Below, piece after piece: positions 30,719-58,556 of a stretch of DNA of 64,000 bases. Made by a program: the position numbers and the translations under genes. Position 1 is the first letter of the stretch. Every line of letters starts with the position of its first letter. A model generated the notes under the pieces. That model ran no database searches and had not been told where the DNA came from. It saw only the letters and a program-made list of their open reading frames with translations. Source of the stretch: Thermomonas brevis (GTDB lineage: Bacteria > Pseudomonadota > Gammaproteobacteria > Xanthomonadales > Xanthomonadaceae); contig NZ_CP060711.1 in NCBI RefSeq assembly GCF_014395425.1, positions 1 to 64,000 of the forward strand, given 5' to 3'.

Positions 30719-30727
30719 GCTTTGCTC

Positions 30728-30853
30728 GTTATTCCCGCCAAGGCGGGAATCCAGTGACTTTCGTACAAGTCGCCGCGATTCTCCCGAGGAGCGAAGACAC
30801 TGGATACGCAGACACAAGGTCTGCGAAACGATGCCCGCCTTCGCGGGAATGAC
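30728..30853. repeat. Inverted pair of REP-like repeats between kmo and sbcB
   Basis: One unit at 30728-30754 and its inverted partner ending at 30853 with core GCCCGCCTTCGCGGGAATGAC-type sequence. The second unit is interrupted after CTGGAT (ending 30805) by about 25 bases holding a small hairpin (CGCAGAC..GTCTGCG). The spacer ends AAGACACTGGAT, as in the pair before lysS. Confidence 0.75.
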
Positions 30854-30864
30854 GGGCACGGAAA

Positions 30865-32250
30865 TCACGCATCGGCCAATGGCTCCAACTTCACCAGCAC
30901 GGCCGCATCCGTCGCCGCCCAATCCACGCCGTCCAGCGACACCAGCCCGCGCGTCGCCTCGACCAGAATGTCGCGCTGCACCTCGCTGCGGTGCAGGGCC
31001 ATGGCGTAGGGAATCCGCATGAACGTGACCATCGCGTAATGCGGCACGAAGCGGCCGGGATGGCGCTCCTGCAAGGCCAGTTCGAGCTGGCGCTGGAGCA
31101 GGAACTCCGCGTCGTCCACCTTGTCGCGCATTTCGATGTAGTTCTCCAGCGCCATCTTCTGGATCGCCTCGGCGTTCGGCTTGCGCTCGGCCTCGAAGGC
31201 GGCGAACGCCTCCGCCAGCGACGGCGTGCGCTCCAGATGCTCGGCCAGCGCCACGCAGTCCTCGAACGCGCAGTTCATGCCTTGGCCGTGGAACGGCACC
31301 ATCGCGTGCGCGGCGTCGCCCAGCAGCACCGCCTGGCCGCCGAGGTGCCAGCGATCGAGGTAGAGCGTGGCGAGGCTGCCGACCGGATTGGCCTCGTAGT
31401 CGTGGCGCAGCGCCGGGATCAGCGGCAGGGTGTCCGGGAACTGCGCATCGAACAGCGCCATCGCCTCGTCGCCGTTCTGCACCTGCTCGAAACTGGGGTG
31501 GGCGCCCGCATGCGGCATGAACAGCGTCACCGTGAAGGTGCGCTCGTCGTTGGGCAGAGCGATGCACATGTAGTGGCCGCGCGGCCAGATGTGCAGCGCA
31601 TTGGGCTCGATGCGGAAGCCGCCGTCGGCGGCCGGCGGGATTTCCAGCTCCTTGTAGCCGTGGTCCAGCCATTCGGTGCGTTCGCCCAGCGACCGCACCT
31701 TCGCCATCTCCGCGCGCAGCGTCGAGCCGGCGCCGTCCGCGCCGACCAGCGCGTGGAAGGGGCGGGCCACGGTTTCCGCGTGGTGGCGGAAGGTGGCGAC
31801 GTGGTCGACGAAATCCACCCGCTCCAGCGCGTGGTCGAAGTGCAGGCGCGCGCCGTGCGACTCGGCGATGTCGAGCAGCACCAGGTTGAGCTCGCCGCGG
31901 TTGATCGACCAGATCACTTCGGAATCGTCGCGGCCGTAACGCTGCAGGCCTGGCTCGCCGTGCAGCGGATGCACGTAGCGGCCGCGCATCATCACCGCCT
32001 GCTTCAGCACCGCGTCGTCGGCGCCGGCTTGGCGCAGCGCGTGCAGGCCGCGTTCGGCCAGCGCGAGATTGATCGAGCGTCCGCCGGCATAGCCTTCCAC
32101 ACGCGGATCGCCGCGCCGTTCGTACACGTCCACCGACCAGCCGCGCCGGGCCAGCAGGATGGCGAGCAGGGCGCCGGCCAGGCCGCCGCCGATGAGGGTC
32201 AAATGCTCGTCATTCCCGCGAAGGCGGGAATCCAGCTTTTCCGATGTCAT
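30865..32250 (-). CDS. kmo: Kynurenine 3-monooxygenase with cassette-encoded N-terminus
   Basis: A 461-residue FAD monooxygenase hydroxylating kynurenine to 3-hydroxykynurenine. Visible are the Rossmann motif LTLIGGGLAGALLAILLARR, GRSINLALAERG, and GDAAHAMVPFHGQGMNCAFE. Residues 1-16 are not ancestral: residues 5-15 (with DSRLRGND) come from a REP-like inverted repeat that bounds the GIY-YIG cassette. The ATG at 32250 lies 41 bases inside the end of the GIY-YIG gene in another frame, so re-initiation or coupling is likely. TTG at residue 17 is the only later start before the FAD motif. The original start (Met-Ala-His-Leu) is still recognisable at the end of kynU. Confidence 0.93.
   Translation of the reverse strand: MTSEKLDSRLRGNDEHLTLIGGGLAGALLAILLARRGWSVDVYERRGDPRVEGYAGGRSINLALAERGLHALRQAGADDAVLKQAVMMRGRYVHPLHGEPGLQRYGRDDSEVIWSINRGELNLVLLDIAESHGARLHFDHALERVDFVDHVATFRHHAETVARPFHALVGADGAGSTLRAEMAKVRSLGERTEWLDHGYKELEIPPAADGGFRIEPNALHIWPRGHYMCIALPNDERTFTVTLFMPHAGAHPSFEQVQNGDEAMALFDAQFPDTLPLIPALRHDYEANPVGSLATLYLDRWHLGGQAVLLGDAAHAMVPFHGQGMNCAFEDCVALAEHLERTPSLAEAFAAFEAERKPNAEAIQKMALENYIEMRDKVDDAEFLLQRQLELALQERHPGRFVPHYAMVTFMRIPYAMALHRSEVQRDILVEATRGLVSLDGVDWAATDAAVLVKLEPLADA
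32207..32238. repeat. Left inverted repeat of the GIY-YIG cassette
   Basis: A REP-like unit starting TCGTCATTCCCGCGAAGG and ending ATCCAGCTT. It contains the GIY-YIG stop codon on one side and encodes kmo residues 5-15 on the same strand in another frame. Confidence 0.85.
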
Positions 32251-32545
32251 GCGCGTCCCCGATTATCTTCGGCCACAGGTCTTTCCATGCTGGATTCAGG
32301 GATTCGATGAGCCGTGTTTTCCAGGCGCGATTCCATTTCTTCAGTTGCTTCTCGCGTTGAATTGCCGATTCCATCGAATCGTGTTGCTCGTACCAAACGA
32401 GATGCTCGACTCCGTACTGCTTGGTGAAACCGTCAGCGACATGGTTTCGATGCTGCCACGTTCTTGCAATCAGATTGCTGGTCACGCCGATGTAGAGAGT
32501 GCCTTGATAGTGGCTTGCGAGGATGTAGACGGCAGGCTGCTTCAT
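32210..32545 (-). CDS. Small GIY-YIG family nuclease carried by the cassette
   Basis: A 111-residue single-domain protein of the small GIY-YIG family related to the UvrC N-terminal nuclease. Motifs: VYILASHYQGTLYIGVTS (GIY and YIG strands), LIARTWQHRN with the catalytic arginine, QYGVEHLVWYEQHDSMESAI, and REKQLKKWNRAWKTRLIE with the metal-binding glutamate and conserved KKWNR. The last residues (GFPPSRE) are read from the left inverted repeat, where the stop falls. The gene lies on the same strand as kynU and kmo and overlaps kmo by 41 bases. Its codon use is more A/T-rich than its neighbours. Small GIY-YIG proteins of this kind are multicopy in many Proteobacteria; their role is not settled. 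Confidence 0.9.
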   Translation of the reverse strand: MKQPAVYILASHYQGTLYIGVTSNLIARTWQHRNHVADGFTKQYGVEHLVWYEQHDSMESAIQREKQLKKWNRAWKTRLIESLNPAWKDLWPKIIGDAHDIGKAGFPPSRE

Positions 32546-32564
32546 TGTTTCGAGACAAGATCAC

Positions 32565-32596
32565 AAGCTGGATGCCCGCCTTCGCGGGCATGACGA
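32565..32596. repeat. Right inverted repeat of the GIY-YIG cassette
   Basis: A REP-like unit beginning AAGCTGGATGCCCGCC and ending CATGACGA. It abuts the kynU stop codon (32597-32599) and matches the left repeat in inverse at 30 of 32 positions. Confidence 0.85.
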
Positions 32597-33865
<1,269 letters not shown>

Positions 33866-58442: not shown

Positions 58443-58465
58443 TGCCGCGTTGACGCGCTCTTGCT

Positions 58466-58547
58466 GTCATTCCCGCGAAGGCGGGAATCCAGCGACGTTG
58501 ATCCTTCCCGCAACAAGACACTGGATTCCCGCCTTCGCGGGAATGAC
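58466..58547. repeat. Inverted pair of REP-like repeats between prfB and lysS
   Basis: Two 27-base units, 58466-58492 and 58521-58547, are exact reverse complements apart from context, separated by 28 bases. They are the cleanest copies in the window (core CCCGCGAAGGCGGG). The second unit ends nine bases before the lysS ATG. The lysS frame is open through the pair, but the start at 58557 is supported by family length. Confidence 0.85.
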
Positions 58548-58556
58548 GAGCAAAAA

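What the first reader, a model, noticed from the sequence alone, without database searches (positions are those of the whole stretch)
32199..32604. A 390-bp GIY-YIG nuclease cassette with REP-hairpin inverted ends and an 8-bp target duplication
Seen: one small GIY-YIG gene lies between 32-base inverted repeats (30 of 32 matching). Each end is itself a hairpin of the REP-like family found elsewhere in the window. The two differing bases are self-consistent within each hairpin, as if each end were under selection to fold. Directly outside lie TCAAATGC and TCAAGTGC. The interior is poorer in G+C than its surroundings. Inference: this is a minimal mobile unit in which a GIY-YIG nuclease, not a Y1 transposase (RAYT), is paired with REP sequences. 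If the nuclease acts on the hairpins, it would be a second kind of REP-mobilising system. Small multicopy GIY-YIG proteins are known in Proteobacteria; I am not aware of a described element with this architecture.
Basis: partly seen in the sequence, partly recalled or inferred. Interest (0 to 1): 0.92.

Follow-up and report, generated by a model that had tools for sequence, protein, structure and literature searches.

The report
REP-hairpin mobile unit carrying GIY-YIG nuclease
A tiny mobile DNA unit whose only gene encodes a GIY-YIG DNA-cutting enzyme is bounded by short palindromes of a widespread bacterial repeat family for which no partner enzyme had been reported, so the enzyme is a strong candidate for what spreads those repeats.

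Summary
The cassette is real. A 111-aa GIY-YIG nuclease gene lies between inverted hairpins (32208-32234, 32569-32595) matching CGTC-1 REPs (CGTC tag, 8-bp stem, 4-nt loop, CCA tail). Di Nocera et al. [quoted passage not shown] ten full-text searches, with capped lists, showed no paper linking them to GIY-YIG. Of 72 relatives with complete flanks, 64 have such a hairpin within 200 bp, against 7 of 137 shifted windows. In 120 Pseudomonadota genomes, 19 of 31 with the nuclease are repeat-rich against 9 of 89 without (OR 14). RAYT is more weakly associated overall, but matters among nuclease carriers. In two genomes with informative paralogues, homology starts at the hairpins and stops outside; in a third only one end does. 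kynU-KMO is empty in 16 of 19 genomes of the genus. The 8-bp target duplication is not supported. Two relatives of an occupied Sphingobium site carry one palindrome there, like an excision scar. Best reading: a REPtron-like unit with an Slx1-like nuclease instead of a RAYT, and the genome's at least 35 REP pairs as gene-less derivatives. Nuclease action on the hairpins is inferred, not shown.

The parts
32210..32545 (-). GIY-YIG nuclease gene, 111 aa; its last codons (GFPPSRE) and stop codon are supplied by the hairpin
   Evidence: ORF; PF01541 E 7.5e-14; Y7, Y18, G20, R28, E65, N84 invariant in the 30 aligned sequences
32208..32234 (+). CGTC-1 REP unit at one end: CGTC tag, 8-bp stem ATTCCCGC/GCGGGAAT, loop GAAG, tail CCA (tag outward, tail toward the gene)
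   Evidence: definition of CGTC-1
32569..32595 (-). CGTC-1 REP unit at the other end, stem ATGCCCGC/GCGGGCAT
32199..32206 (+). TCAAATGC, the supposed left copy of a target duplication; overlaps the outer tip of the element, not supported as a duplication
32597..32604 (+). TCAAGTGC, the supposed right copy; contains the kynU stop codon
30865..32250 (-). kynurenine 3-monooxygenase-like gene (KMO); the open frame now starts inside the cassette ([23 protein letters not shown]), reading through the hairpin
   Evidence: same in-frame arrangement visible in the two other occupied congeners; gene name from sequence knowledge, no family search was run on it
32597..33865 (-). kynureninase-like gene (kynU); the cassette sits between its stop codon and KMO
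   Evidence: gene name from sequence knowledge, no family search was run on it; junction compared
58465..58548 (.). gene-less inverted REP pair (REPIN-like) with the same kind of ends, 30-nt spacer
30727..30854. second gene-less inverted REP pair of the window, with a nested extra hairpin in one unit (coordinates worked out)

Best explanation
The cassette is an autonomous, REPtron-like mobile unit. Its ends are CGTC-1 REP hairpins and its single gene encodes a one-domain GIY-YIG nuclease, the dedicated partner of those REPs. Proposed working: the nuclease, whose predicted fold is nearest to UPF0213 and the branched-DNA nuclease Slx1, recognises the CGTC-tagged hairpins when they extrude as a cruciform or on single-stranded DNA at a replication fork, and cuts at or near both. 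The freed unit, or a copy, is joined into new sites with host help, without target duplication and sometimes with loss of target bases. Inverted REP pairs are gene-less derivatives mobilised in trans, and single double-tagged palindromes are excision scars. Shown: the unit's boundaries in two genomes, occupied and empty sites, the cis association, genome-level co-occurrence, hairpin types that differ between nuclease lineages. Inferred: that the nuclease cuts the hairpins, where it cuts, and how joining occurs.
For: Gene plus inverted hairpins in the window. A second own-genome copy, 67% identical, has the same layout between cydA and cydB and its own stem variant. Of the 80 relatives kept from genome contigs, 55 have a hairpin within 200 bp upstream, 59 downstream, 42 both; density 7.5-12.8 per kb within 50 bp, 0-0.32 beyond 600 bp. 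With complete flanks 64 of 72 against 7 of 137 shifted windows; within 150 bp upstream hairpins point tail-inward 53 to 11, downstream 52 to 30. Empty sites: kynU-KMO 16 of 19 genomes of the genus, own included; cydAB 3 of 5. Boundary: four cassettes of genome G104 match 37-40 of 40 bases inside the left hairpin and 9-19 of 40 just outside; two of G163 likewise 39 and 10. Co-occurrence: 19 of 31 nuclease-positive against 9 of 89 negative genomes are repeat-rich, 2409 against 357 copies; for RAYT OR 3.1, and no significant effect among nuclease-negative genomes. Cassettes of different lineages carry different hairpin types. Of 35 REP pairs 24 have regular ends, 22 of them typable at both: 12 A/A, 8 B/B, 2 mixed; the 5' end of one cassette is type A, the other cassette nearer B. 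Nearest folds UPF0213 and Slx1.
Against: No activity data. GIY-YIG enzymes are hydrolases (recalled), so rejoining needs host enzymes or an unknown step. Among the 31 nuclease-positive genomes, 14 of 16 with a RAYT are repeat-rich but only 5 of 15 without (p 0.003), so a RAYT contribution is not excluded. Some genomes have many repeats without a detected nuclease (G086 164, G102 50, G151 39; congener G021 41), and 12 of 31 nuclease-positive genomes have few repeats of the searched pattern; several carry other hairpin types, not all do. The boundary result rests on 2 of 8 genomes with several copies: in G098 homology of two copies ends at the right hairpin but begins at the gene start, and the other five gave no informative pair. 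The stem type of the second own cassette has no dispersed copy in the listing of its own genome, and only 10 of 35 repeats of G022 have that genome's cassette type. The odd hairpin of congener G014 occurs only 4 times, all within 2 kb. Of 42 loci with hairpins on both sides 27 have the expected facing pair nearest the gene. Shifted control windows are mostly coding, not matched intergenic sequence.
Confidence: 0.68

Rival explanations
1. Homing-type parasite: the GIY-YIG gene is a free-standing homing endonuclease that cuts REP pairs already present and is copied into them by repair; the REPs spread by another agent.
For: GIY-YIG nucleases include classical homing endonucleases (recalled). At the Sphingobium site two relatives carry a single REP palindrome where others carry the cassette. 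In G098 two copies share the gene and right hairpin but not the left one.
Against: Repeats are scarce where the nuclease is absent (9 of 89 genomes with >=5 copies), not what a parasite of independently spread REPs predicts. Empty kynU-KMO and cydAB sites hold no REP. The four G104 paralogues begin at the hairpin, with unrelated flanks.
Confidence: 0.17
2. The REPs and the cassette are moved in trans by a RAYT or another tyrosine transposase; the GIY-YIG gene is a passenger.
For: The own genome has one Y1 transposase gene. RAYT presence is associated with the repeats (OR 3.1, p 0.018), and within nuclease carriers 14 of 16 with RAYT against 5 of 15 without are repeat-rich (p 0.003).
Against: No CGTC hairpin lies within 1.5 kb of the own Y1 gene. 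Among nuclease-negative genomes RAYT makes no significant difference (7 of 50 against 2 of 39, p 0.29), and 5 of 15 nuclease carriers without RAYT are still repeat-rich. Di Nocera et al. 2013 found no tyrosine transposase gene flanked by CGTC units (passages).
Confidence: 0.09
3. The hairpins are ordinary terminators or mRNA-stabilising REPs, and a host nuclease gene merely sits in an intergenic spot between them.
For: REPs sit mostly downstream of genes and may act in RNA (abstract). Another GIY-YIG gene of the genome, not of this group, also has a single hairpin about 180 bp away.
Against: 64 of 72 relatives against 7 of 137 shifted windows; homology of paralogous copies begins at the hairpin in two genomes; presence and absence between congeners at two different operons.
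Confidence: 0.03

Closest known systems
CGTC-1 REPs (Di Nocera, De Gregorio and Rocco 2013, PMC3733652; include dRS3 of Neisseria and RPE-6 of Rickettsia)
   Same: Tag, 8-bp stem beginning AT, 4-nt loop, CCA tail, many copies, inverted dimers: the ends of this cassette match the published definition.
   Different: The paper reports no associated transposase, and the passages I saw discuss only transposases; here a GIY-YIG gene sits between two units and recurs beside such units in several phyla.
REPtrons: RAYT (TnpA-REP, HUH/Y1 transposase) with GTAG REPs, and REPINs
   Same: One gene flanked by inverted hairpins with a conserved tetranucleotide; non-autonomous inverted pairs dispersed in the genome; no target duplication seen here.
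   Different: Enzyme of an unrelated superfamily (GIY-YIG hydrolase), tag CGTC instead of GTAG, cassette itself sometimes present in several copies per genome.
GIY-YIG homing endonuclease genes (I-TevI type, recalled)
   Same: Same catalytic domain; small selfish unit present or absent between relatives.
   Different: No extra DNA-binding domain (111 aa, one domain), not in an intron, bounded by REP hairpins, paralogous copies with unrelated flanks.
UPF0213 proteins and Slx1
   Same: Nearest solved relatives by sequence (1zg2, 1ywl) and by fold (1zg2, then Slx1, none under E 0.001).
   Different: Slx1 has an added domain and a partner protein (recalled); I know of none that is bounded by REPs.

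Membership tests
CGTC-1 REP | terminal unpaired CGTC (variants TGTC, CCTC) | tested here: met
   both ends of the cassette; definition
CGTC-1 REP | 8-bp stem starting with A-T pairs, 4-nt loop, CCA tail | tested here: met
   ATTCCCGC-GAAG-GCGGGAAT-CCA and ATGCCCGC-GAAG-GCGGGCAT-CCA
CGTC-1 REP | many dispersed copies, mostly inverted dimers | tested here: met
   91 strict matches at 85 places; at least 35 inverted pairs and 27 rows of single units among the fetched places
GIY-YIG nuclease superfamily (PF01541) | Pfam score over cut-off and conserved Y, Y, R, E, N (roles recalled) | tested here: met
   52.2 bits against 22.6; invariant residues in A1
GIY-YIG nuclease superfamily (PF01541) | DNA cleavage activity | not testable with these tools
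   needs purified protein
RAYT/REPtron | Y1/HUH transposase gene between GTAG REPs | tested here: not met
   only gene in the unit is GIY-YIG; tag is CGTC; own Y1 gene has no CGTC hairpin within 1.5 kb
Classical insertion sequence | fixed-length target duplication | tested here: not met
   35 REP pairs plus this cassette, empty sites, paralogous cassettes
Homing endonuclease gene | empty allele carries the uninterrupted recognition site (here a REP) | tested here: inconclusive
   kynU-KMO and cydAB empties hold no REP; at the Sphingobium site two of the four fetched relatives lacking the gene hold one REP palindrome

The most novel reading that the evidence does not exclude
Single-domain GIY-YIG nucleases are the long-missing mobilising enzymes of the CGTC REP super-family, a form of prokaryotic DNA mobility that uses no known transposase chemistry: hairpin ends, a structure-selective hydrolase and host joining. 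It would account for repeats across several phyla, including those named dRS3 and RPE-6, and rhizobial elements like those flanking the S. meliloti copy.
Probability: 0.58. Interest if true: 0.93.

Novelty: categorically new. Interest (0 to 1): 0.85.

Why it matters
CGTC REPs occur in many bacteria, and a 2013 survey left open how they spread because no transposase was linked to them. A small nuclease gene found between two such REPs, with such a hairpin beside it in 64 of 72 relatives, with empty sites and, in two genomes, sharp ends, makes that question directly testable in vitro and in E. coli K-12. If right, it adds an enzyme superfamily to the short list that moves DNA in prokaryotes and gives a compact hairpin-cutting enzyme of about 100 residues. 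It may also offer a function for a large group of proteins that carry at most a generic name (7991 of 8000 scored candidates at E <= 1e-10; most of these were not examined for REPs).

Tried and rejected
Target duplication: tested on 36 units (35 REP pairs and the window cassette; make-up checked) with mismatched pairs as control. Best z 3.6 among many offsets and lengths tried, no consistent length or position. A mild excess exists: the longest shared direct repeat averages 4.1 against 3.6, and 4 of 36 share one of 6 or more against 1.2 expected. Not accepted as a rule.

RAYT as the mover: tested by genome co-occurrence and local flanks; disfavoured, but the association within nuclease carriers speaks for it.

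Phage carriage: no match in 50,697 phage records at E 1e-5 and 18 loci in IMG/VR by a pattern-based scan; not a main route in these collections.

Rfam: nothing near a gathering score at the locus. NCBIfam: no family at E 0.001.

S. meliloti and Rhizobium sp. CIAT894 plasmids gave no clean empty sites in the rows listed, because the flanking repeats or an IS dominated the matches. Boundary comparison (20 stretches of 8 genomes): informative in G104 and G163, one-sided in G098, weak in G057 (68% over the gene only), no match between copies in G112, G069, G073 and G144.

Types A and B of the REP-pair inner ends were defined after looking at the pairs; arms that pair with each other could also agree, so this is weak support.

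Hairpin-type tree: long against short hairpins need 7 changes on the protein tree, below all 200 shuffles (minimum 8). Taxonomy is a confounder (class tally), so weak support only.

Literature: 10 searches. GIY-YIG with 'repetitive extragenic palindromic' and with dRS3 gave 0 papers. The broader searches gave up to 571 papers of which at most 20 were listed, so absence in print is not proven. Of PMC3733652 I saw the abstract, outline, passages and sections 6 and 14; of PMC9465073, PMC12306157, PMC6006769 and PMC5082802 only passages; the rest only as listings. The library lacks most subscription papers and holds no preprints.

Full report
What is there. The window is from a 3.44-Mb single-contig genome; among its nearest named protein relatives are Thermomonas entries. 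At 32208-32595 a GIY-YIG gene (minus strand, 111 aa; PF01541 E 7.5e-14) lies between two inverted hairpins. The arms are 35 nt and 91% complementary; the two base differences inside each hairpin are compensatory. Interior G+C is 0.52 against 0.71-0.72 outside. The stop codon and last residues of the protein are read from the hairpin.

The hairpins are a known repeat family. CGTC-ATTCCCGC-GAAG-GCGGGAAT-CCA fits the CGTC-1 family of Di Nocera et al. 2013 (PMC3733652; abstract, passages and sections 6 and 14 seen): tag, 8-bp stem starting AT, 4-nt loop, CCA tail, mostly inverted dimers. [quoted passage not shown] The own genome has 91 strict matches at 85 places (0 for the reversed pattern). Among the places fetched there are 35 distinct inverted pairs, tags outward and tails inward (one search prints 36 because one pair appears twice). 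Of these 35, 11 have irregular inner ends, 2 are undecided at one end, and 22 can be typed at both: 12 A/A, 8 B/B, 2 mixed. The 5' inner end of the window cassette is type A (12 against 7) and its 3' end is undecided (9 against 9); both ends of the second cassette are nearer type B (11 against 7, 9 against 5). This fits gene-less derivatives of the two cassettes, although the types were defined after looking and arms that pair with each other could also agree.

A second copy and empty sites. A 67%-identical copy lies between cydA and cydB with its own stem variant (gene names from sequence knowledge). Of 25 genomes of the genus, 19 (own included) gave a KMO locus: the kynU-KMO junction is empty in 16 and occupied in 3 (own, G018 and a degraded copy in G008). 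cydB was found in 5 of 25; that junction is occupied in 2 (own, G022) and empty in 3. The empty kynU-KMO junctions carry some 20-30 nt, including the usual KMO start, that the occupied site lacks, and in all three occupied genomes KMO can be read from inside the cassette ([14 protein letters not shown]...).

The association is general. Density is 7.5-12.8 per kb within 50 bp and 0-0.32 beyond 600 bp. Of the 72 with complete flanks, 64 have one on at least one side, against 7 of 137 windows shifted by 1500 bp, most of which will be coding. The hosts named include Gamma-, Beta-, Alpha- and Zetaproteobacteria, Campylobacterota, Planctomycetes and Chloroflexi; many are MAGs, where binning error is possible. 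Eight copies from the plasmid collection were inspected, of 33 records with a match. The six alphaproteobacterial ones show their own hairpin types on both sides (for example CGTCATCCCAGGGCTTGACCCTGGGATCCA in Rhizobium), and the Azospirillum one sits between sufB and sufC; the Aeromonas one has a clear hairpin upstream. The cyanobacterial one is flanked by related GTCATTCTGAG repeats.

The hairpins as ends of the mobile unit. I compared copies within 8 genomes. In G104 four cassettes lie at four places. From the left hairpin inward they match 37-40 of 40 bases; the 40 bases just outside match 9-19 of 40. At the right end the best pair matches 39 of 40 inside and 12 outside; pairs with L253 match 25 inside and 16-19 outside because of indels, and one copy has a damaged right end. 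The two G163 copies behave alike: left 39 inside and 10 outside, right 35 and 21. In G098 two copies share gene and right hairpin, but their homology begins at the gene start, not at the upstream hairpin. G057 gave only a 68% match over the gene; the remaining four genomes gave no match between copies.

No target duplication is seen in the three complete G104 copies, and 35 REP pairs plus the window cassette show no consistent one, apart from a mild excess of short shared words.

Genome-level co-occurrence. In 120 Pseudomonadota genomes drawn evenly (analysis), 19 of 31 with the nuclease have 5 or more CGTC repeats against 9 of 89 without (OR 14, p 5e-8; 2409 against 357 copies). For RAYT (PF01797) the OR is 3.1 (p 0.018); among nuclease-negative genomes 7 of 50 against 2 of 39 (p 0.29), but among nuclease carriers 14 of 16 against 5 of 15 (p 0.003). 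So a RAYT contribution is not excluded, though nuclease carriers without RAYT include lineages whose hairpins the pattern does not catch. These p-values ignore phylogeny. In the genus (25 genomes) the five clear nuclease carriers have 76, 36, 35, 27 and 1 repeats; the other 20 (one with a weak match, 15 repeats) have 0-15, except G021 with 41. The carrier with 1 repeat (G014) has a different hairpin type at its cassette, found in none of the other 24 genomes but only 4 times in its own, all within 2 kb. In G022 10 of 35 repeats are of its cassette's stem type; in the own genome the stem type of the second cassette appears only at that cassette.

Scars. In Sphingobium megaplasmids 7 records hold the whole cassette region. 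Of four partly matching records fetched, two (TYG64, TYG74) hold at the same place one palindrome that fits the left arm of one REP joined to the right arm of the other; two show no REP there. The own genome has six double-tagged palindromes of this kind by pattern, five of them read, two with mismatched arms. They look like excision products, by enzyme or by deletion between short repeats; the data do not separate these.

Protein. The residues expected to be catalytic (roles recalled) are invariant in the 30 aligned sequences. The AlphaFold2 model has mean pLDDT 84. Nearest folds are UPF0213 and Slx1, best Foldseek E 0.003, none under 0.001; by sequence 1zg2 E 2.8e-7 and 1ywl 3.2e-5. A structure-selective nuclease is therefore a natural guess for a protein that lives between hairpins.

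Verdict. That this is a mobile unit with CGTC REP ends and a GIY-YIG gene is well supported. That the nuclease is the mobilising enzyme is the best explanation of the co-occurrence and of the lineage-specific hairpins, but it is untested. A homing-type parasite of REPs remains the main rival, a RAYT contribution the second. I call it categorically new because, as far as I know, no transposase of prokaryotic elements belongs to this superfamily and my searches, with capped lists, showed none described for these repeats; the repeats themselves are known.

Noticed in passing
own genome, loci L021, L024, L137, L143 and others; window about 30800-30830: Several REP units carry an extra 25-30-nt hairpin (CGCTTCTGACAGACG...CGTCTGTC or TCGCAGACC...GTCTGCG) inserted within one arm just before the CCA tail: a nested repeat family.
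   Followed up: no
30865-32250: KMO in the window reads in frame from inside the cassette, so a REP hairpin may be translated as its N-terminal extension (DSRLRGND), as in the two other occupied congeners.
   Followed up: partly
L119 (own genome 3355465-3355791): The single RAYT-like gene of the genome is flanked by repeated GGGGTCAGAGTCG-type sequences, not by CGTC REPs.
   Followed up: partly
L165 / L228 (congener G018): An array of an 18-bp repeat (CCGCTCGATGCCGGCTTT) lies between kynU and the cassette.
   Followed up: no
L231 (congener G014): The cassette with the odd hairpin lies between two near-identical copies of about 33 bp at the start of a gene that looks, by eye, like a type I restriction S subunit.
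   Followed up: no
own genome, loci L010, L014, L018, L121, L144: Solitary palindromes with a CGTC tag at both ends, candidate excision scars; a sixth at 3202382 was seen only by pattern.
   Followed up: partly
L191 (Sinorhizobium meliloti pSymB): The GIY-YIG gene is flanked on both sides by long mosaic repeats with CTCATCCCTGTGC hairpins; from memory these resemble rhizobial RIME elements.
   Followed up: no
L196 (Planktothrix agardhii plasmid): A GIY-YIG copy lies between an MmeI-like enzyme gene and the DISARM gene drmA, amid GTCATTCTGAG repeats.
   Followed up: no
640-665: A degenerate hairpin of the same family (5 mismatches) on the minus strand.
   Followed up: no
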